Source of the DNA: Baekduia alba
GTDB lineage: Bacteria; Actinomycetota; Thermoleophilia; Solirubrobacterales; Solirubrobacteraceae
Direction: 5' to 3'
DNA: 64,000 nt
NCBI RefSeq assembly: GCF_028416635.1
Contig: NZ_CP114013.1
Coordinates: 4,464,001-4,528,000 of the forward strand
The notes beneath the pieces were generated by a model. The model made no database searches, was not told the origin of the DNA, and worked only from the letters and a program-made list of their open reading frames with translations. Below are positions 9,373 through 43,667 of this stretch, piece by piece; position 1 is the first letter of the stretch, and every line of letters starts with the position of its first letter. A program made the translations under genes and the position numbers.

Positions 9373-11115
9373 ATGGCGATGCCACCGTCGCCACGCCCTT
9401 CGCGCGCCCGGACTCACGTGCGCCGTGCCGTGGCGATCGGGGTCGTCGTGGTCGTCGCCGGCGGCGCGTTCCTCGTCATCAGCGGCGGCGCGCCGAGCGA
9501 GCAGGACACGGTCGTGAAGTTCGCCCGCGCCTGGAACGCCGGCGACTACGCGACGATGCGCGCGCAGACCACGGGCGACGACCAGGACCGCTACAGCGCC
9601 CGGGCGTTCGCCGGGCGCTACACCGACGCCGCCGGCACGGCGACCGCGACGAAGGTCGTCGCGGGCCAGCCGCGCGACGACGGCGACGGCCACTGGGAGC
9701 TGCCGGTGACCGTCCAGACGCGGTCGTTCGGCCCGGTGACCGGCCGGCTGCGCTTCGACGTCGTCAAGGACGGCGACGACGAGCGCATCGACTGGAAGCC
9801 GAGCCTCGTCTTCCCCGGCCTGACCGCCGGCGAGCGCCTGCGCCGCACGACGACGATGCCCGCCCGCGCCGACCTGCTCGCGCGCGACGGGACGCCGCTG
9901 GCCCAGGGCGCGGAGCGCTCGTCGCCGCTCGGCGCGACCGCGCAGGCCATCGTCGGCGCGCTCGGCCCGATCCCGGAGACCTACAAGGACAAGGCGCAGG
10001 AGCTCGGCTACCCGAGCGACGCGCAGGTCGGCATCAGCGGCCTGGAGCGCACGTTCGATGAGCGCCTGGCCGGCACGCCCGGCGGCCAGCTGCGCGCCGG
10101 CGTCCGCCTGCTCGCCGAGCGCGACCCGCGCAAGGCCGCCCCGGTACGGACGACGATCGCGCCCAAGGTCCAGGAGGCCGCGGTCACCGCGCTGGCCGGC
10201 CGGCTGGGCGGCGTCGTCGCGCTGCGGCCCAAGACCGGCGAGATCCTGGCCGCCGCCGGCATCGGCTTCAGCGGCCTGCAGCCGCCCGGCTCCACGTTCA
10301 AGATCATCACCGCGACCGGCGTCCTGGCCAACGGCGTCGCCAAGCCGAGCGACGCGTTCCCGGTCCAGACCGCGGCGACGCTCGAGGGCGTCGAGCTGCA
10401 GAACGCCAACGGCGAGTCGTGCGGCGGGACGCTCGCGGAGTCGTTCGCGCTGTCGTGCAACAGCGTCTTCGCGCCGCTCGGCGCCAAGCTCGGCGCGCAG
10501 AAGCTCGTCGCGACCGCCGAGGCCTTCGGCTTCAACCAGCCGACCGGGATCACCGGCGCGGCGACCGCGTCGATCCCGCCGGCCAACGAGATCGGCGACG
10601 ACCTCGCGGTCGGCTCGAGCGCGATCGGCCAGGGCCGCGTGCAGGCGACCGCGCTGCAGATGGCGATCGTCGCGGCGACGATCGGCCTGCGCGGCCGGCG
10701 GCCCGACGTGACGCTCGACCCGGACCGGTGGAAGGGCGCCGCGCCGACGCACGAGGCGACGAGCAGCAAGGTCGCGCGTCAGGTCGAGAAGCTGATGCTC
10801 GGCGTCGTCCGCTACGGCACGGGCAAGGTCGCGGCGATCCCGGACGTCAAGGTCGCGGGCAAGACCGGCACGGCCGAGCTGAAGTCGACGCAGGCCTGCA
10901 AGCCCGAGGACGCCGAGACCGATCCGGAGCGCTGCGGCCCCGACCAGCAGTCCGACACGACCGACACCGACGCCTGGTTCTCGTCCTACGCACCCGCCGG
11001 CAACGGCACGCCCCGCATCGCGGTCGGCGTCCTGCTCGTCGGCGCGGGCGCCGGCGGCGACACCGCCGCACCCGCGGCCCGCCAGGTGCTGCTCACCGGG
11101 CTGAAGAACGACTAG
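9373..11115 (+). CDS. Class B penicillin-binding protein (peptidoglycan transpeptidase)
   Basis: This 580-residue protein is a monofunctional D,D-transpeptidase. One N-terminal membrane anchor (about residues 19-38) is followed by an NTF2-like MecA N-terminal domain (about 45-150), a dimerisation-like region and the transpeptidase domain. The active-site motifs are complete: S307-T-F-K310, S361-C-N363 and K497-T-G499. GAGG at 9362-9365 sits 7 bases before ATG 9373, which decides the start. The cysteines around residue 515 (QACKPEDAE, ERCGPD) could form a disulfide. The gene is divergent from the MarP-like protease, and a structured repeat follows its stop directly. Confidence 0.92.
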   Translation: MAMPPSPRPSRARTHVRRAVAIGVVVVVAGGAFLVISGGAPSEQDTVVKFARAWNAGDYATMRAQTTGDDQDRYSARAFAGRYTDAAGTATATKVVAGQPRDDGDGHWELPVTVQTRSFGPVTGRLRFDVVKDGDDERIDWKPSLVFPGLTAGERLRRTTTMPARADLLARDGTPLAQGAERSSPLGATAQAIVGALGPIPETYKDKAQELGYPSDAQVGISGLERTFDERLAGTPGGQLRAGVRLLAERDPRKAAPVRTTIAPKVQEAAVTALAGRLGGVVALRPKTGEILAAAGIGFSGLQPPGSTFKIITATGVLANGVAKPSDAFPVQTAATLEGVELQNANGESCGGTLAESFALSCNSVFAPLGAKLGAQKLVATAEAFGFNQPTGITGAATASIPPANEIGDDLAVGSSAIGQGRVQATALQMAIVAATIGLRGRRPDVTLDPDRWKGAAPTHEATSSKVARQVEKLMLGVVRYGTGKVAAIPDVKVAGKTGTAELKSTQACKPEDAETDPERCGPDQQSDTTDTDAWFSSYAPAGNGTPRIAVGVLLVGAGAGGDTAAPAARQVLLTGLKND

Positions 11116-11121
11116 CCGCAG

Positions 11122-11238
11122 CCCGGTTCTGCGGCCCGGATCGTCGTGGCTGACGTCGCCGGCCCAGCGGCAGCGTGCACCAGCACGTGAAGCGGGTCGG
11201 CGACCCTCAGGCGCGCGAGACGGCCCGCAGAACCGCGC
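11122..11238 (+). repeat. Convergent-gap structured element, copy 1
   Basis: This roughly 117-bp element fills almost the whole gap between the convergent PBP and lipoprotein genes. It has imperfect terminal inverted repeats of about 17 bp (11122-11138 against 11221-11237, 15/17 complementary). Inside are an 11-pair stem (GTCGCCGGCCC with GGGTCGGCGAC) and an apical hairpin CGTGC-ACCA-GCACG. A second copy, inverted and about 85% identical by eye, lies at 15079-15196. A G-C pair here becomes G-U there, so the stem is kept. It may be a bidirectional terminator or a MITE-like element. Confidence 0.75.
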
Positions 11239-11240
11239 TG

Positions 11241-11801
11241 CTAGACGTCCAGGTCGACGGTGGCGGACTTGCCGCCGTCGGGCGGCGTGATGTCCAGCTC
11301 GAGCGGGCGGCTCGCGTAGGAGGAGTTCTCGACCTTGAAGAGGATCAGGCCGCCCTGCGTCAGGTTCTCGCGGGCCAGCGAGCCCGGGACCGGGATCTGG
11401 TCGCCGCCGTCGACGACGTTCGCGTGGTAGGCGACGCGGTTGATGTTGGTGTTGAGCGCGACCGGCTGGTACTCCTTGCCGGTGGTGTCGCGGATCACGA
11501 ACTGCGACGCCGCCTCGTGCGGCGCCTTGGTCCGGTTGAAGACGCGGACGAAGACCGCGAACCACTCCTGGTTGGGCGCGAGGCGCGCGCCGACGGGCAG
11601 GCCCGTGAGGTAGTCGCGATCTTCGAAGTCCTTCTCGTTGAGCTGGCGCGAGATCTGGACCTGGTAGGCGAGATCGCCCGTGTTGACGTACACGCCCTCG
11701 GTCTTGCCGGCGGTGGGCTCCGAGTCGGAGCCGCAGGCGGCGAGGGACGTCGTGGCGGCGAGCGCGACGGTGGCGAGGGCGACGAGACGGCGGAGCTTCA
11801 T
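11241..11801 (-). CDS. Putative lipoprotein (DUF4352-like)
   Basis: This 186-residue protein has a lipoprotein signal peptide with lipobox LAAC (cysteine about residue 23). The mature part is beta-rich with alternating hydrophobic residues: VYVNTGDLAYQVQIS, EWFAVFVRVFNRT and QFVIRDTTGKEYQPV. This looks like an immunoglobulin-like fold of the DUF4352 type found on the outer face of actinobacterial membranes. ATG at 11801 opens the signal peptide. It is the last of three minus-strand genes (zinc-ribbon, SRPBCC, lipoprotein). No enzymatic function can be assigned. Confidence 0.75.
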   Translation of the reverse strand: MKLRRLVALATVALAATTSLAACGSDSEPTAGKTEGVYVNTGDLAYQVQISRQLNEKDFEDRDYLTGLPVGARLAPNQEWFAVFVRVFNRTKAPHEAASQFVIRDTTGKEYQPVALNTNINRVAYHANVVDGGDQIPVPGSLARENLTQGGLILFKVENSSYASRPLELDITPPDGGKSATVDLDV

Positions 11802-11815
11802 GACGGCGGCGGACT

Positions 11816-12364
11816 CTAGCGATTGACGTCGGTCTGGAACCGGAAGGCCGAAGTCGGCTTCCGCGGGCCGCCCGCGACGGTGGCGCGCGTGCCGCGGTCG
11901 CGGCCCTCCTCGAAGATCGCGCGAAGGCGGTTCAGCGACTTCTTGCTCTGGCGCTTCATCCACAGGCGGCCGACCGGGCCGCCCTCCAGGATCGCGTCGG
12001 TCGGGAGCTTGCGCTTGGTCTCCAGCGTGAACCGCACCCGCGTCGTCCCGGCGCCCGCGTCCTCGAGCTCGTAGACGCCGCGCGTGAGGATGCGGTTGTA
12101 CTTGCCGGCGCGGCCGCGCTCGAGGATCGTGCGCGGGGCGACGACCTCGGTGAACGTCGAGTCCGCCCAGGCGTAGCGGCTGCGGACCGGGAGCTTGATC
12201 CGGTAGCGGGCGCCGGCGCCCGTTCCGTAGGAGTCCTCCCGGGTCAGGTGCCACTTCACGAGGTAGTGGTCGCAGAACTCCGGGTGGTTCGCGATGTCCG
12301 CGAGGTACTCGAAGACCTCCTCACGGGGGCGCGCGATGACGACTTCGACGGTGAAGGGGTCCAC
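11816..12364 (-). CDS. SRPBCC-family (START-like) protein
   Basis: This 182-residue protein fits the polyketide cyclase/dehydrase helix-grip fold: VEVVIARPREEVFEYLADIANHPEF at the start, a central beta-sheet, and a long C-terminal helix (KKSLNRLRAIFEEG). Such proteins bind a hydrophobic ligand in a deep pocket; the ligand here is unknown. I chose the GTG at 12364 because homology begins there (VDPFTVEV); the frame stays open upstream but overlaps the zinc-ribbon gene. The C-terminal 20 residues are basic. Confidence 0.75.
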   Translation of the reverse strand: MDPFTVEVVIARPREEVFEYLADIANHPEFCDHYLVKWHLTREDSYGTGAGARYRIKLPVRSRYAWADSTFTEVVAPRTILERGRAGKYNRILTRGVYELEDAGAGTTRVRFTLETKRKLPTDAILEGGPVGRLWMKRQSKKSLNRLRAIFEEGRDRGTRATVAGGPRKPTSAFRFQTDVNR

Positions 12365-12393
12365 GCGCCGAGATTCTACCCGCGAGCGGGCCG

Positions 12394-12663
12394 CTAGGCG
12401 GCGTGGCGCGCGACGCGCTTGACCGTGTGTCCGCGCTCGAAGTGGCGGACGAGCTCGACCGCGTCGGGCTCGGCGCGGCGCAGCGGCGTGCACAGGGCGC
12501 AGACCGCGGAGTGGCGGCCATAGCGGTACATGCGCTCCCCCACCAGCGGCGTGCGGCCGCAGTCGGCGCAGGTCGAGCGGCCGGCGGTCAGCGAGCCCAC
12601 GGACTTGCGCAGCAGCGCCGCCTCGAGGTCCGTCTCGTGCAGGGTGCGGAGCGTACGTGCCAT
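12394..12663 (-). CDS. Small zinc-ribbon protein
   Basis: This 89-residue protein has two CxxC knuckles, CADC and CALC, about 22 residues apart, forming a likely zinc ribbon. A basic, helical C-terminus follows (HFERGHTVKRVARHAA). No enzymatic domain is visible. It is divergent from the FHA gene, whose product also starts with a zinc ribbon, across a 203-bp gap. That gap holds the hairpin CTGCC-GGTCT-GGCAG (12804-12818) and two copies of CCGGTCAA (12769 and 12842). I do not recognise a characterised family. Confidence 0.6.
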   Translation of the reverse strand: MARTLRTLHETDLEAALLRKSVGSLTAGRSTCADCGRTPLVGERMYRYGRHSAVCALCTPLRRAEPDAVELVRHFERGHTVKRVARHAA

Positions 12664-12866
12664 GTCGGGTGACTTCGTCGCGACCTGGCGCGGTCCTGCA
12701 CCGCAAAGCGGTTTGCCGCCGCGTGCAGGCGGATATGCCGATGGCTGCTGATGACGCGCTGCGAACGGCCGGTCAAAGGATTGACGCCCGGGGTTTTCGT
12801 GCTGCCGGTCTGGCAGTACAGTCGTCGCGAGCGGGTCGCCAACCGGTCAACGAGGGAGTGGTCGAT

Positions 12867-13442
12867 ATGGAGTCCTTGACGTCTGGGACCCTCGCAGGAA
12901 CGGGGTCCTTCCGGTGCGAGCAGTGCGGCTATGTGGTGACGTTGGCCGCCGCGGATGAGCTTCCGGCCTGCCCGGGCTGCCATGGGGCGAGCTTCGTGCG
13001 CGCGTCGCTGTTCGCCGCCGGTCGGTTCCATCGCTCGGGCGAGGCGTCCAGCGAGGAGAGCCGGGCCGCGGTCGTCGCGACGGCCCGCGCCGAGGTCACC
13101 GAGCCGGGCGAGTACCTCGCCTTCGAGGACGGCGGCCGCGTGCGCGTCGTCTCGCTGAGCAAGGAGTGGACGCGGGTCGGCCGGTCGCTGGCCGCCGACG
13201 TGCGCTTCGACGATCCGACCGTGTCGCGCCGGCACGCGCTGATCGTGCGCCAGCCCGACGGCGTGCGCGTCCTCGACGACCGGTCGCTCAACGGCGTGTT
13301 CGTCAACGGCGAGCGCGTGGAATGGCGTGCGCTGGCCGACGGCGACGAGATCGTCGTCGGGCGCTACCGCCTGCAGTACCTGCACCTGACCGCCGAGGCG
13401 CTGGCGCAGCCGGCCGACCTCGACCTCGAGATCAGCGGCTGA
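12867..13442 (+). CDS. Zinc-ribbon FHA-domain protein
   Basis: This 191-residue protein pairs an N-terminal zinc ribbon (C17-x2-C20 and C35-x2-C38) with a C-terminal FHA domain (about residues 100-170). The FHA signatures are present: VGRS, SRRHA and LNGVFVNGE. FHA domains bind phosphothreonine, so the protein probably reads the output of Ser/Thr kinases. ATG 12867 is preceded by GAGGGAG, and the zinc ribbon begins soon after. A ParA-like ATPase follows 44 bp downstream, then an L,D-transpeptidase overlapping parA by 4 bp, so the three form an operon. Confidence 0.85.
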   Translation: MESLTSGTLAGTGSFRCEQCGYVVTLAAADELPACPGCHGASFVRASLFAAGRFHRSGEASSEESRAAVVATARAEVTEPGEYLAFEDGGRVRVVSLSKEWTRVGRSLAADVRFDDPTVSRRHALIVRQPDGVRVLDDRSLNGVFVNGERVEWRALADGDEIVVGRYRLQYLHLTAEALAQPADLDLEISG

Positions 13443-13486
13443 GCGGCGAGCGAGCCGCGCGGGGTGTCTTAGACTCCGCGCGGCCT

Positions 13487-14305
13487 ATGGCCATCAAGCT
13501 CGCGGTCCTCAGCCAGAAGGGCGGCACGGGCAAGACCACCGCCGTCCGCCACCTCGCCGACATGTTCCGGCGGGCGGGGCTGCGTGTCGCGGCGGTGGAC
13601 CTCGATCCGCAGGGCAACCTCAGCGACTACTTCGACGTCGATCCCGCGGCCGATCCCACGATCCGCGACGTCCTCACCGGCTCGGCGAAGGCCAAGGCCG
13701 CGCTGCACGTCGCGCCCGACGGCGTCAGCGTCATCCCGTCCAACCTCCAGCTGGCCGAGGCGGAGGTCGCGCTGGCCGGCAAGATGGGCCGCGAGCTGAC
13801 GCTGCGCCGCGCGCTCAAGCCGATCGACGGCGACTTCGACGTCATCTTCCTGGACTGCCCGCCCAACCTGGGGCTGTTGACGGTCAACGCGCTCGTGGCC
13901 GCCGACCAGGCGCTGCTGAGCGCCGAGGCGCAGTACTTCGCGCTGCAGGGCGTCGAGCAGGCGCTCGAGGTCATCGAGCTGGCGCGCGACGGCCTCAACC
14001 CGGACCTCCAGTGGCTCGGCGTCGTCTTCACGATCGCCGACATGCGGACGGTTCACTCGCGCGAGGCGCAGGCGTCGCTGAAGGCGCACGTCGGCGACAA
14101 GCTGCTCGACACCGTCGTGCGCCAGTCGATCGCCTACGCCGAGTCGGCCGAGCGCGCGGTGTCGATCATCGACCACCGCCCGGACCTGGGCGCCGACTAC
14201 CTCGCGCTGGCCGACGAGCTGCTGCGCCGGCTCGAGCTGACCGCGGCGCGCGCCCAGCTCAAGCCGCTGCTGGACGCCTCGCAGGACGGCGCGCCGGCGC
14301 GATGA
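13487..14305 (+). CDS. ParA/Soj-family ATPase
   Basis: This 272-residue protein has the deviant Walker A of ParA proteins, KGGTGKTT (residues 11-18), switch I VDLDPQGNLS, and the Walker B-like IFLDCPPNLG. ParA ATPases form dimers on the nucleoid or membrane and position DNA or protein cargo. No parB or centromere-like repeat is nearby, and chromosomal parA normally sits near the origin with parB. Here the partners are an FHA protein upstream and an L,D-transpeptidase overlapping by 4 bp. It may therefore be an orphan ParA that positions envelope or signalling proteins; that role is inference. Confidence 0.88.
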   Translation: MAIKLAVLSQKGGTGKTTAVRHLADMFRRAGLRVAAVDLDPQGNLSDYFDVDPAADPTIRDVLTGSAKAKAALHVAPDGVSVIPSNLQLAEAEVALAGKMGRELTLRRALKPIDGDFDVIFLDCPPNLGLLTVNALVAADQALLSAEAQYFALQGVEQALEVIELARDGLNPDLQWLGVVFTIADMRTVHSREAQASLKAHVGDKLLDTVVRQSIAYAESAERAVSIIDHRPDLGADYLALADELLRRLELTAARAQLKPLLDASQDGAPAR

Positions 14306-15078
14306 GCCACCGTCGCCGGGTCGTGACGGGCGCCGCCGCCGCGGCGGCGCTGATGGCGGCCGGCTGCGGCGCGGACGCGACGCCGGAGGCCGGCACGCAG
14401 ACGCAGGGGCCCGCCAAGACGCAGACCGCGCCGGCGCCCGCGCCGGCCTCGACGACGCCGAAGCCCGCGGCCGCCGGGCCGGTGCTCAAGCCGCCGCTGG
14501 CCTTCAGCGTGCGCCGCCGCGCCCAGCTGCGCACCTCGCCCAACGGCAGGGTCGTCGCGACGATCAAGACCAAGACGGAGTTCAAGTCCCCCACGATCCT
14601 CGCCGTCGCCGGCCGCAAGCCGGGCTGGGTGCTGGTCCGCACCGAGGTCGAGAAGCACCACGTCGGCTGGCTGCCGCTGAGCGCGGGCCACCTGTTCAGC
14701 GAGCCGCGGACGATCGTGATCGACCTGTCGGCGCGCAAGTTGTCCGTCTTCCACCGCGGCCGGCTGACCGACACCTACAAGGTGGCGATCGGGACCGACG
14801 CGACGCCGACGCCGCGCGGCAGGTTCGCCGTCACCGACCGGCTGACGACCGGCGACGCCAACGGCGACTACGGCTGCTGCATCCTGGCCCTGACCGCCCA
14901 CCAGCCGAAGATCGCGCAGGGCTGGGGCGGCGGCGACCGCGTCGCGATCCACGCGACGCCGCACACCTGGACGCTCGGCAAGCAGGTCAGCCACGGCTGC
15001 GTCCGCGCCACGAACAAGGCGCTGCGCCAGCTCATGCGCCACGCCCGTCTGGGCATGCCCGTCACGATCCACGCGTAG
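14302..15078 (+). CDS. L,D-transpeptidase lipoprotein (YkuD domain)
   Basis: This 258-residue protein has a lipoprotein-type signal (lipobox MAAGC), a Pro/Ala/Thr-rich linker (about residues 30-65), an SH3-like segment, and a YkuD domain (about 135-257). The catalytic motif is complete: H231-G-C233-V-R. The enzyme makes 3-3 peptidoglycan cross-links or attaches proteins to the wall, outside the membrane. ATG 14302 overlaps the parA stop (ATGA), so translation is coupled. Sitting with ParA and FHA, it may be the wall-synthesis output of a positioned, phosphorylation-responsive module. Confidence 0.9.
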   Translation: MSHRRRVVTGAAAAAALMAAGCGADATPEAGTQTQGPAKTQTAPAPAPASTTPKPAAAGPVLKPPLAFSVRRRAQLRTSPNGRVVATIKTKTEFKSPTILAVAGRKPGWVLVRTEVEKHHVGWLPLSAGHLFSEPRTIVIDLSARKLSVFHRGRLTDTYKVAIGTDATPTPRGRFAVTDRLTTGDANGDYGCCILALTAHQPKIAQGWGGGDRVAIHATPHTWTLGKQVSHGCVRATNKALRQLMRHARLGMPVTIHA

Positions 15079-15196
15079 GGCGGCTCTCCGGGCCGCCTCG
15101 TCGCGCCTGACAGTCGCCAACCCGCTTCACGTGCGGGAGCACGCTGGCCGCTGGGCCGGCGACGTCGGCCACGACGATCCGGGCCGGCGAACCGCC
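15079..15196 (-). repeat. Convergent-gap structured element, copy 2
   Basis: This inverted relative of the element at 11122-11238 occupies exactly the 118 bp between the L,D-transpeptidase stop and the thrB stop. The terminal arms (about 15078-15094 and 15180-15196) are about 14/17 complementary. The inner stem is kept through G-U pairs, and the apical hairpin has the same stem (CGTGC/GCACG) with a changed loop (TCCC instead of ACCA). Substitutions in loops and at wobble positions suggest the fold is conserved. Confidence 0.75.
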
Positions 15197-16057
15197 CTAC
15201 AGCTCGCGTACGTCCGCCCCATGCGGCTCGAACGGGGCCCGGTGCACGGTGGCCCAGCCGGCGGTCTCGCGCCGCAGCGCGTCGAGGACCGCGCCGGTCT
15301 GCTCGTAGTGGCACCAGACCAGGACGGTCGGGCCGGCGCCGGAGATCGTGGCGCCGAGGGCGCCGAGGTCGCGGGCGCGCGCCACGAGGTCGGCGGAGCG
15401 CGGGAACAGGTGCGCGCGGTGGGGCTGGTGGAGGCGGTCGGCGAGGCCGCGGCTGACGAGGTCCCAGTCGCCGCGCGCGAGGCCCAGCACGAGCAGCGAC
15501 GCGTGGGCGATGTTGGCCACCGCGTCGGCCATCGGGACCGCGGCGGGCAGCGCGGCGCGCGCCTCCTTGGTCCGGACCGGCTCGTCCGGGACGACGATGA
15601 TCGCCTCCAGCCCCGTCGGCGCGTCGAACCGGGTGGCCTGGGTCGGCGGGCCCGGCTCGCAGATCACGAAGCCGCCGAGCAGCGCGGCGGCGACGTTGTC
15701 GGGATGGCCCTCGAGCTCGGTCGCGAGCGCCAGGATGTCGGCGTCGAGCTCGAAGAGGTGGTCGGCGGCGAGCAGGCCGCCGACGTAGGCCGCGGCGCTC
15801 GTCCCCAGCCCGCCGCTGAGCGGGATGTCGGAGCGGATCCGGAACTCGAACGCGTCCGGCGGATGCAGCCGCTCGAAGCCGCGCACCGCGAGGTTGCGCC
15901 GGTCCTTGGCGATCGCGAGGTCGGTGACGACGGCGAAGCGCCCGGTCTCGACGACCTCGATCTCGGTGTGCAGCGCGAGCGCGGCGGCGAACGCGTCGAA
16001 GCCCGGCCCGAGGTTGGCCGAGGACGCGGGCACGCGGACGAGGCGGCGACGCTCCAT
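15197..16057 (-). CDS. thrB: Homoserine kinase
   Basis: This 286-residue GHMP kinase phosphorylates L-homoserine, the step before threonine synthase. Motif 1 is VPASSANLGPGFD near the N-terminus, the ATP loop is PLSGGLGTSAAA (about residue 88), and motif 3 is ISGAGPTVLV near the C-terminus. ATG at 16057 gives a normal start. The rest of the pathway (lysA, hom, thrC) is a separate minus-strand operon 4 kb away, with an AraC/FAD-oxidase/MFS group between. The gene stands alone, facing the L,D-transpeptidase. Confidence 0.93.
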   Translation of the reverse strand: MERRRLVRVPASSANLGPGFDAFAAALALHTEIEVVETGRFAVVTDLAIAKDRRNLAVRGFERLHPPDAFEFRIRSDIPLSGGLGTSAAAYVGGLLAADHLFELDADILALATELEGHPDNVAAALLGGFVICEPGPPTQATRFDAPTGLEAIIVVPDEPVRTKEARAALPAAVPMADAVANIAHASLLVLGLARGDWDLVSRGLADRLHQPHRAHLFPRSADLVARARDLGALGATISGAGPTVLVWCHYEQTGAVLDALRRETAGWATVHRAPFEPHGADVREL

Positions 16058-31247: not shown

Positions 31248-31258
31248 AACCAAATCCT

Positions 31259-31419
31259 CTTTCGTCGGCCTGCGGGGTTAGCTGACGGGCTAGCGCGGAA
31301 AGAGCCTGCGCTTCCCAGGAAAACTCCTGGAATTCGCCCCAAACAACCTTTGGGTCCCCCGCCCCAGGCTCCTCACCTGGGTTCGGCGTGGTCGGAAACC
31401 TACACGACCGGGACGAAAG
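31259..31419 (-). promoter_or_regulatory. Cyclic-di-AMP riboswitch (ydaO/yuaA class)
   Basis: Read on the minus strand, the leader carries the class hallmarks in order: GCCGAACCCAGG, GGGGCGGGGGACCC, TTGGGGCGAATTCC, and CCCGTCAGCTAACCCCGCAGG. The closing helix P1 pairs CTTTCGTC (31419-31412) with GACGAAAG (31266-31259). The last two bases of P1 are the first two of the AGAGG Shine-Dalgarno (31260-31256). Ligand-stabilised P1 would therefore mask the ribosome site, consistent with the OFF switches known for this class in front of actinobacterial wall hydrolases. Confidence 0.92.
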
Positions 31420-42836: not shown

Positions 42837-43457
42837 ATGCGGATTCACGCCATCCCCCACTCCACGAACGTCCACCGCGTCGCGCTCGCGCTCGGCCTCA
42901 AGGGCGTCGCGGTCGACGCGTGGGTCCAGCACGCGCCCGACGACCGCGCGGCCATCCGCGCCGTCTCCGGCCAGGATCTCGTCCCGGTGGTCGAGACCGA
43001 CGACGGCCGGATCCTCACCGACTCGATGTCGATCGTCGCGTGGATCGACGCGACCTGGCCCGAGCCGGCCCGGCTGTATCCAGAGGATCCCGCCCTGCGC
43101 GCCCAGATCGACGCCTTCATCACGTTCTTCAACGTCGTGTGGAAGCTTCCGCCGAACGCGATCGAGGCCGAGCGGCGCAGAGCGCGGCCCGACGCGGCGC
43201 GGATCGCGGCCTGGGTGGCTCAGCTGCAAGGCTGGCAGCACGGCTTCGAGGGGCTGCTGCACGGCCGGCCCTACCTGTTCGGGACCGACGGCCCGAGCGC
43301 CGCCGACATCTGCGCCTATCCGTTCCTGCGCTTCACGACCTCGTCGGACCCCGACGACGACGACCTCTTCCACGGCGTGCTGTTGGAGCACCTGCCCGGC
43401 GACTTCCCGGACCTCGCCGCGTGGATCGCGCGAATGGCTCGACTCCCGCTGTCCTAG
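42837..43457 (+). CDS. Glutathione S-transferase-like protein
   Basis: This 206-residue protein has an N-terminal thioredoxin-like GST domain (MRIHAIPHSTNVHRVALAL, with DLVPVVETDDGRILTDSMSIVAWID) and a helical C-terminal domain with SAADICAYPFL. The serine and asparagine after PHS are plausible thiol-activating residues. Actinobacteria usually lack glutathione, so the thiol may differ or the protein may act otherwise. The divergent LysR is a likely regulator. The stop is directly followed by a 59-bp tandem repeat array. Confidence 0.85.
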   Translation: MRIHAIPHSTNVHRVALALGLKGVAVDAWVQHAPDDRAAIRAVSGQDLVPVVETDDGRILTDSMSIVAWIDATWPEPARLYPEDPALRAQIDAFITFFNVVWKLPPNAIEAERRRARPDAARIAAWVAQLQGWQHGFEGLLHGRPYLFGTDGPSAADICAYPFLRFTTSSDPDDDDLFHGVLLEHLPGDFPDLAAWIARMARLPLS

Positions 43458-43667
43458 AAATCGAACCGGCCCGCCTAGAGGAGGGCTCCTCAGCCGGACG
43501 AGCGCCACGGCCCCCAAAATCGAACCGGCCCGCCTAGAGGAGGGCTCCTCAGCCGGACGAGCGCCACGGCCCCCAAAATCGAACCGGCCCGCCTAGAGGA
43601 GGGCTCCTCAGCCGGACGAGCGCCAGGCCCCCCAAAATCGAACCGGCCCGCCTGAGGAGCGGGCCGG
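43458..43667 (+). repeat. 59-bp tandem repeat array of hairpins after GST gene
   Basis: Units start at 43458, 43517, 43576 and 43635, exactly 59 bp apart; the first begins at the base after the GST stop codon. Three units are full, the fourth is partial. Each full unit can fold: outer stem CCGGC/GCCGG enclosing GAGGAG/CTCCTC. The fourth instead has a perfect 9-bp terminator-like stem. Units are nearly identical (the third ends CAGGCCCC instead of CACGGCCC). There is no spacer pattern, so it is not CRISPR. Confidence 0.9.
43643..43667 (+). terminator. Terminator-like hairpin closing the 59-bp array
   Basis: CCGGCCCGC pairs perfectly with GCGGGCCGG across the loop CTGAGGA, followed by ATCGTGCTTCT. 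It ends the repeat array and probably stops transcription from the GST gene. Confidence 0.75.

What the first reader, a model, noticed from the sequence alone, without database searches (positions are those of the whole stretch)
11116..15196. Dispersed ~117-bp foldable element filling two convergent gaps
Seen: 11122-11238 and the reverse complement of 15079-15196 agree at about 85% by eye, with terminal inverted repeats, an 11-pair stem conserved through G-C to G-U changes, and an apical hairpin whose loop differs. Each copy exactly fills the space between two convergent stop codons. It could be a MITE-like element used as a bidirectional terminator, or a structured RNA. Both lie beside a peptidoglycan transpeptidase gene.
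Basis: partly seen in the sequence, partly recalled or inferred. Interest (0 to 1): 0.75.

Follow-up and report, generated by a model that had tools for sequence, protein, structure and literature searches.

The report
Mobile hairpin repeats at stop codons
The two matching stretches are copies of a small jumping DNA hairpin that occurs about 36 times in this bacterium's genome and often lands on the stop signals at the ends of genes, which its own ends can rebuild, so it can spread without breaking them.

Summary
Both copies (window 11113-11243 +, 15076-15199 -) belong to a dispersed family with 36 strong places in the 5.86-Mb genome. It forms one long imperfect hairpin: 28 of 46 pairs have double-sided changes, and the covariation score is 0.414 against 0.149 shuffled. 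One strand folds better in 93 of 95 copies.

It has moved. Of 75 regions fetched from sister species, none matches; three sites already known to be occupied were left out beforehand. In 41 of the 75 both flanking genes are conserved. At two loci the empty site is one CTAG shared by two convergent stop codons. CTAG is scarce, and 19 of 33 window sites are stop codons, which explains the exact fit.

It resembles REP/ERIC-type palindromes but is longer (about 117-160 nt). The mobiliser is unproven: a RAYT-like gene occurs in four of six genomes with at least six copies, but in only 4 of 12 carriers of the class search, no more than background. DDE transposase domains are nearly absent. A terminator or regulatory-RNA role is unsupported, not excluded.

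The parts
11113..11243 (+). copy 1 of the hairpin element, from stop codon to stop codon (subfamily A)
15076..15199 (-). copy 2 of the hairpin element, from stop codon to stop codon (subfamily A)
11113..11115 (+). TAG stop of the penicillin-binding protein gene; part of CTAG 11112-11115 at the left edge
11241..11243 (-). TAG stop (CTA on +) of the convergent gene; part of CTAG 11241-11244 at the right edge
15076..15078 (+). TAG stop of the L,D-transpeptidase gene, at the paired base of the hairpin
15197..15199 (-). TAG stop (CTA on +) of the GHMP-kinase gene, at the paired base of the hairpin
11145..11152 (+). conserved 5' core CGTGGCTG, with G.G mismatch and U.G pairs
11208..11215 (+). conserved 3' core CAGGCGCG
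11173..11188 (+). apical hairpin GCGTGC-ACCA-GCACGT
15166..15173 (-). 5' core of copy 2 (variant CGTGGCCG)
15102..15109 (-). 3' core of copy 2 (CAGGCGCG)
9418..11115 (+). flanking gene: penicillin-binding protein transpeptidase (context; start chosen by my gene caller)
11241..11963 (-). flanking gene, no Pfam match at E<=0.001 (context)
14302..15078 (+). flanking gene: YkuD L,D-transpeptidase (context; start chosen by eye inside the ORF 14011-15078)
15197..16057 (-). flanking gene: GHMP kinase (context)

Best explanation
A non-autonomous mobile palindromic repeat. SHOWN: it is dispersed, it varies in number between related species, and it is absent from many conserved gene pairs of sister species. 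SHOWN: it folds into one long imperfect hairpin whose pairing is kept by paired changes while specific mismatches (G.G, C.C, A.G) stay fixed, and one strand is favoured. SHOWN at some loci: it sits in a CTAG or similar site. INFERRED: it gathers at gene ends because CTAG is scarce except at stop codons, and because copies that begin AG and end CT rebuild TAG in both directions, so insertion into overlapping stop codons is harmless. INFERRED and less sure: it is handled as a single-stranded DNA hairpin by an enzyme like the REP-associated tyrosine transposases (RAYT, HUH class). That would explain the fixed mismatches, the strand preference and the CT at borders. It has no fixed role for the genes beside it.
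For: Copies: 36 places at E<=2.8e-12 in the genome, two of them partial. Same genus (places after merging both-strand hits): 11 in G006, 7 in G003, 1 in G004, none in G001. Empty sites: 0 of 75 fetched relative regions match at E<=0.01; 41 of them, for 22 loci, have both flanking orthologs in the same arrangement. At L004 and L012 the two G006 genes share one CTAG where this genome has CTAG-element-CTAG. At L014 and L015 the flanking frame runs into the element and ends in an element-coded tail; the G006 ortholog matches only to residue 45 or 51 of 60. Structure. Strand: 156 G.U against 23 A.C cells; 93 of 95 copies fold better on the same strand with RNA and with DNA parameters. Mismatches: G.G 29/32, C.C 28/32, A.G 30/32. 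Edges: CTAG on both sides in 16 of 72 copies; 22 of 48 short copies begin AG and 22 end CT. CTAG: 33 in the window, 19 at stop codons. RAYT-like gene in G000, G006, G017, G318. E. coli and S. maltophilia TnpA_REP act on one strand of the REP and cut at CT; E. coli's needs the stem bulge (PMC8266576, passages seen).
Against: Of the 12 element-positive genomes of the class search only 4 have a Y1 (RAYT-type) domain, against 125 of 399 overall: no association. Of six genomes with at least six copies, G289 and G003 (68% complete) have none found. A RAYT profile finds nothing in 12 of 15 further genomes, including carriers 95-99% complete (G011, G115, G193, G213, G244). No match to the element at E<=0.2 lies in the 3.3-kb RAYT loci. 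Four non-CTAG copies have matching tetramers on both sides (CTAA, CTGA, CGAG, CCAG), which favours a target duplication and a DDE enzyme. The 3' end of guaA holds an element in four genomes, which could mean local function or a very old insertion. The strand test is partly circular, because the model chose each copy's orientation.
Confidence: 0.55

Rival explanations
1. A classical MITE moved by a DDE transposase that prefers CTAG (IS630-type, TA duplicated inside CTAG; or another family with such a target). The hairpin is only its long terminal inverted repeats.
For: CTAG on both sides in 16 of 72 copies; matching non-CTAG tetramers CTAA, CTGA, CGAG, CCAG. IS630 prefers TA in CTAG (title of Tenzen and Ohtsubo 1991, seen in the reference list of PMC2170065).
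Against: IS701-like PF13546: 0 of 7 genomes. IS4/IS5 PF01609: only G244 of 7. IS630 PF13358: one match each in G000 (E 1.5e-7) and in G001, which lacks the element; none in G003, G005, G006, G017, G318. DNA searches showed no longer element with these ends in G000 or in G017/G318; ends under about 17 bp would escape. It does not explain fixed mismatches, strand preference or arms that vary yet stay paired. Several borders differ by 1-2 bases.
Confidence: 0.22
2. A cis-acting RNA or bidirectional terminator kept by selection at gene ends.
For: Strong covariation and G.U tolerance. Convergent gaps enriched: 17 of 32 copies against 11 of 57 adjacent pairs of the window, Fisher p 0.0017; none of the 32 in a divergent gap. 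Element at the guaA end in four genomes.
Against: No T-run after either copy. In 14 of 15 tandem pairs here the mRNA would carry the less stable strand; the same-genus set is 4:4 and the longer form 7:4. Sister species lack a match at 41 regions with both genes conserved. No Rfam match at the elements.
Confidence: 0.15
3. Integron attC-like folded recombination sites, each tied to the gene before it.
For: Single-strand fold with unpaired bases just after a stop codon (recalled analogy).
Against: Dispersed over the genome beside unrelated genes and in both orientations. attC core motifs and integrases were not searched.
Confidence: 0.02

Closest known systems
REP (repetitive extragenic palindrome) with RAYT/TnpA_REP, GTAG superfamily (PMC3733652: abstract and sections 15 and 16 read; PMC8266576: passages seen)
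   Same: Dispersed imperfect palindromes; stem irregularities; one strand recognised; next to 3' ends in convergent and tandem gaps, with ends that often supply TAG to flanking genes; CT beside the hairpin.
   Different: About 117-160 nt in one hairpin instead of 20-40; CTAG rather than an unpaired GTAG; about 36 copies; the RAYT gene is not beside copies and was not found in many carriers.
ERIC/IRU, a 127-bp enterobacterial repeat (RU-1 in PMC2759123: abstract start seen in a listing; rest recalled)
   Same: Similar length, intergenic, MITE-like; imperfect palindrome with TA-centred target (recalled).
   Different: Not compared by sequence here; this family has its own core and is found in relatives of Solirubrobacter.
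IS630-type MITEs (recalled)
   Same: CTAG target preference.
   Different: No matching autonomous element found; fixed mismatches and strand-biased fold.
Correia/NEMIS, RUP, BOX and similar small repeats (recalled)
   Same: Small, dispersed, gene-flanking.
   Different: No sequence comparison made.

Membership tests
GTAG REP / REPtron | 20-40 bp palindrome | tested here: not met
   116-118 bp (short form) and 158-161 bp (long form) between matching borders
GTAG REP / REPtron | unpaired GTAG at one end | tested here: not met
   CTAG is the common border word and pairs with the other end; GTAG in L006 and L013
GTAG REP / REPtron | conserved mismatches in the stem (E. coli type) | tested here: met
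   G.G 29/32, C.C 28/32, A.G 30/32
GTAG REP / REPtron | associated RAYT gene flanked by the repeats | tested here: not met
   RAYT-like gene in G000, G006, G017, G318, below the curated cut-off of NCBI's model; not flanked; no co-occurrence in the class
GTAG REP / REPtron | at 3' ends of genes in convergent and tandem gaps | tested here: met
   17 convergent, 15 tandem, 0 divergent of 32 in this genome (own gene calls)
GTAG REP / REPtron | cleavage at CT by the transposase | tested here: inconclusive
   CT at the right end in 22 of 48 short copies and 12 of 19 long ones (read); biochemistry not testable here
MITE of a DDE insertion sequence | terminal inverted repeats | tested here: met
   The whole element is palindromic
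MITE of a DDE insertion sequence | target site duplication | tested here: inconclusive
   CTAG both sides in 16 of 72; single CTAG in the empty sites of L004 and L012; other borders differ
MITE of a DDE insertion sequence | autonomous relative with the same ends | tested here: not met
   None seen in G000, G017 or G318 by DNA search; few DDE domains
structured cis-regulatory RNA | covariation supporting the fold | tested here: met
structured cis-regulatory RNA | fixed orientation to the regulated gene | tested here: not met
   biased in this genome, mixed in others
structured cis-regulatory RNA | match to a curated family | tested here: not met
intrinsic terminator | hairpin followed by a T-run | tested here: not met
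   sequence of both window copies; the other copies were not scanned for it
intrinsic terminator | transcripts end there | not testable with these tools
   needs 3'-end RNA-seq
integron attC | attC core motifs and an integrase nearby | not tested
   considered by analogy only

The most novel reading that the evidence does not exclude
A class of large (about 117-160 nt) non-autonomous transposons that move as a folded single strand. Their arms change freely as long as they stay paired, while a small mismatch-bearing core is conserved across genera of one order. They prefer CTAG, and their terminal AG/CT rebuild amber stop codons on both strands, giving them a near-harmless niche at gene ends.
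Probability: 0.3. Interest if true: 0.65.

Novelty: new variant of a known kind. Interest (0 to 1): 0.45.

Why it matters
It turns a curious pair of gaps into a family with a simple rule for its placement: a scarce target word that survives mainly in stop codons, plus ends that can rebuild the stop. The strand-biased covariation suggests that a single-stranded fold is what is recognised, which a purified enzyme and synthetic oligonucleotides could test. It also warns that covariation plus a position after genes is not enough to call a structured RNA or a terminator.

Tried and rejected
Clean 4-bp duplication: the automatic search for matching tetramers lists at most three candidates per copy and is confounded by the palindrome. 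A fixed-anchor version misplaced anchors in several copies and its counts are not used. TA duplication, CTAG duplication, and no duplication with AG...CT ends all fit the CTAG copies; I could not separate them.

IS630, IS701 and IS4/IS5 domains: tested. Half element near L002/L022 as an autonomous copy: one search lists a 384-aa frame there that looks like N-acetylglucosamine-6-phosphate deacetylase (by eye) and none that I recognised as a transposase. Two half-matches 1.7 kb apart in G017: one is a mini element, the other a short match in a coding stretch.

Orientation to transcription (14:1 in tandem pairs here) is not shared by other genomes, so it is not used as evidence for function. GC skew was too weak to test a replication bias. 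The first gene caller was replaced; the second still misses genes, for example the L,D-transpeptidase, so context counts are approximate.

Rows dropped: from the 32-copy context count, tandem duplicates L035-L037, half or mini copies L022, L039, L042, and partial L034. From the empty-site fetch: of 34 query pieces 28 loci were followed, the list was itself cut short, and three orthologous sites already known to carry an element (G006 at L008; G003 and G004 at guaA) were left out, so '0 of 75' is not an unbiased rate. L006 was left out of the count of 41, because its left gene had been missed. Searches over more than 40 genomes use stricter filters and scored few candidates per genome, so their counts are lower bounds.
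Full report
WHAT IS THERE. The window lies in a single-contig genome of 5,863,246 bases with no name given. The nearest named relatives of its penicillin-binding protein are Solirubrobacter records at 52% identity, so a relative of that genus is likely (inference; records very near the own genome may be left out of that search). A DNA search with copy 1 gives a graded series of matches. A covariance model built from 32 copies finds 36 places at E<=2.8e-12, two of them partial, and weaker ones. There are two subfamilies, differing in the middle and apical helices, some head-to-tail copies (1745501-1745702, 1848610-1848825, 5412164-5412578) and internally deleted minis (L039, L042; L080 in G006).

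STRUCTURE. RNAalifold gives 46 pairs, 28 with changes on both sides. On that structure 94.0% of cells pair (shuffled mean 78.8), 202 cells carry double changes (shuffled 64.7) and the covariation score is 0.414 (shuffled 0.149, 0 of 500 as high); sliding the partner by 1-3 columns destroys it. The structure came from the same alignment, and the copies are related, so these numbers are not probabilities. Mismatches are about as conserved as pairs: G.G in 29 of 32, C.C in 28, A.G in 30. G.U cells outnumber A.C cells 156 to 23, mostly in the inner part (140:11); the outer arms show little of this (16:12). The matching strand folds more stably than its complement in 34 of 36 copies here and 59 of 59 elsewhere, with RNA and with DNA parameters (the model chose the orientation, so this is partly circular). 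The core CGTGGCTG / CAGGCGCG is kept with at most one change in 90 and 83 of 95 copies.

SPREAD. Same genus: 11 places in G006, 7 in G003 (68% complete; two are partial and at contig ends), 1 in G004, 2 weak in G005, 1 weak in G002, none in G001 (E<=0.001). Of 399 genomes of the class 12 match at E<=0.0001, all in one order (a lower bound). In several other genera the element is longer, 158-161 nt between matching borders, with the same core and other arms; one such copy, L086, is in this genome. G017 and G318 hold at least 6 and 13 copies of the long form.

MOBILITY. For 28 loci I fetched 75 orthologous regions from five sister genomes, leaving out three sites already known to be occupied: G006 at L008, and G003 and G004 at guaA. 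None of the 75 holds a model match at E<=0.01. In 41, covering 22 loci, both flanking genes lie in the same arrangement (at least 60% identity over at least 60 residues, within 400 nt). At L004 and L012 the two convergent genes of G006 overlap in a single CTAG, whereas here each side of the element has its own CTAG. At L014 and L015 the neighbouring frame runs into the element and ends in an element-coded tail that the ortholog lacks. The gap of copy 1 is 9 bp in G006 and 81-83 bp in G003, G004 and G001, with no model match there. Against a purely transient life: the 3' end of guaA (GMP synthase, NF000848) carries an element in four genomes of two genera (G000, G003, G004, G009), although the G006, G001 and G005 regions there have no match. 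At L008/L077 the same gene end carries elements in opposite orientation in two species.

WHY AT STOP CODONS. CTAG occurs 33 times in the window, against 154 expected from base composition and 78 from a second-order model; 19 are stop codons of called genes, 5 lie in coding sequence and 9 between genes. CTAG flanks the element on both sides in 16 of 72 copies. In 19 long-form copies the left border is CTAG in 13 and both borders are CTAG in 5, and 15 of the 19 have a called stop codon within 8 nt of an end (read). 22 of 48 short copies begin AG, 22 end CT and 20 do both; in the long form it is 16 and 12 of 19 (read). Where both hold, an insertion between T and A remakes TAG in both directions (inference). 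A survey of REPs reports the same habit: GTAG REP ends often supply the TAG stop, and in two species examined most convergent REPs lie within 20 bp of both genes (PMC3733652, section 15 read). So the exact fit is a known behaviour of palindromic repeats, here with a clear cause. Of 32 full copies 17 lie in convergent, 15 in tandem and 0 in divergent gaps, against 11 convergent of 57 pairs in the window (Fisher p 0.0017). Gene calls are my own and approximate.

WHAT MOVES IT. Matching borders that are not CTAG (CTAA, CTGA, CGAG, CCAG) point to a target duplication. Borders such as CTAG/CTAC or CTAG/CTCT do not, and I could not decide. DDE domains are few: IS630-type one match in G000, one in G001, none in five others; IS701-type 0 of 7 genomes; IS4/IS5-type only in G244 of 7. 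A RAYT-like gene is in G000, G006, G017 and G318, below the curated cut-off of NCBI's RAYT model but at E 1.6e-15 to 1.5e-21, with the HxH motif and a tyrosine conserved in five sequences (that these are the catalytic ones is recalled). E. coli and S. maltophilia TnpA_REP act on the REP strand and not its inverse and cut at CT, the Marinomonas enzyme also at CA, and E. coli's needs the stem bulge (PMC8266576, passages seen). Fixed mismatches, one-strand folding and CT borders therefore fit. Against it: two of six genomes with six or more copies (G289; G003, 68% complete) have no RAYT found; among the 12 positive genomes of the class search only 4 have a Y1 domain, no more than the background of 125 of 399; the profile search found it in only 3 of 15 further genomes; and copies do not flank it. 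I hold the single-strand route as the likeliest of several, not as shown.

NOT A TERMINATOR ON THIS EVIDENCE. No T-run follows either window copy. In this genome 14 of 15 tandem copies put the less stable strand into the mRNA, while other genomes are mixed: 4:4 and 7:4. No Rfam family matches at the elements. Some copies may still end transcripts, as any strong hairpin can.

LITERATURE. Full-text searches listed REP and MITE work in other bacteria; among the listed titles and abstract beginnings I saw none on such repeats in relatives of Solirubrobacter. The REP survey PMC3733652 and the HUH survey PMC6006769 hold none of the actinobacterial names I looked for. Most subscription journals are missing from this library.

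Noticed in passing
window 31252-31398, - strand: c-di-AMP riboswitch (RF00379, 81.4 bits).
   Followed up: no
L151, L152, L183, L184 (sister-species gaps): By eye, sequences starting CTCGCCCAG with a following inverted copy occupy some gaps of sister species that lack this element; possibly another hairpin family.
   Followed up: no
tandem gaps of G000, e.g. L003, L018, L031: In this genome 14 of 15 elements between co-directional genes face against transcription; other genomes show no such bias. Unexplained.
   Followed up: partly
L025, L047, L051, L057: The 3' end of guaA carries an element in four genomes of two genera.
   Followed up: partly
L035 (5412164-5412578 of the genome): Head-to-tail partial copies with a period of 101 bp ending in a complete element.
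   Followed up: no
window 43454-43596: Four CTAG sites spaced 21, 59 and 59 bp in an apparently intergenic stretch.
   Followed up: no
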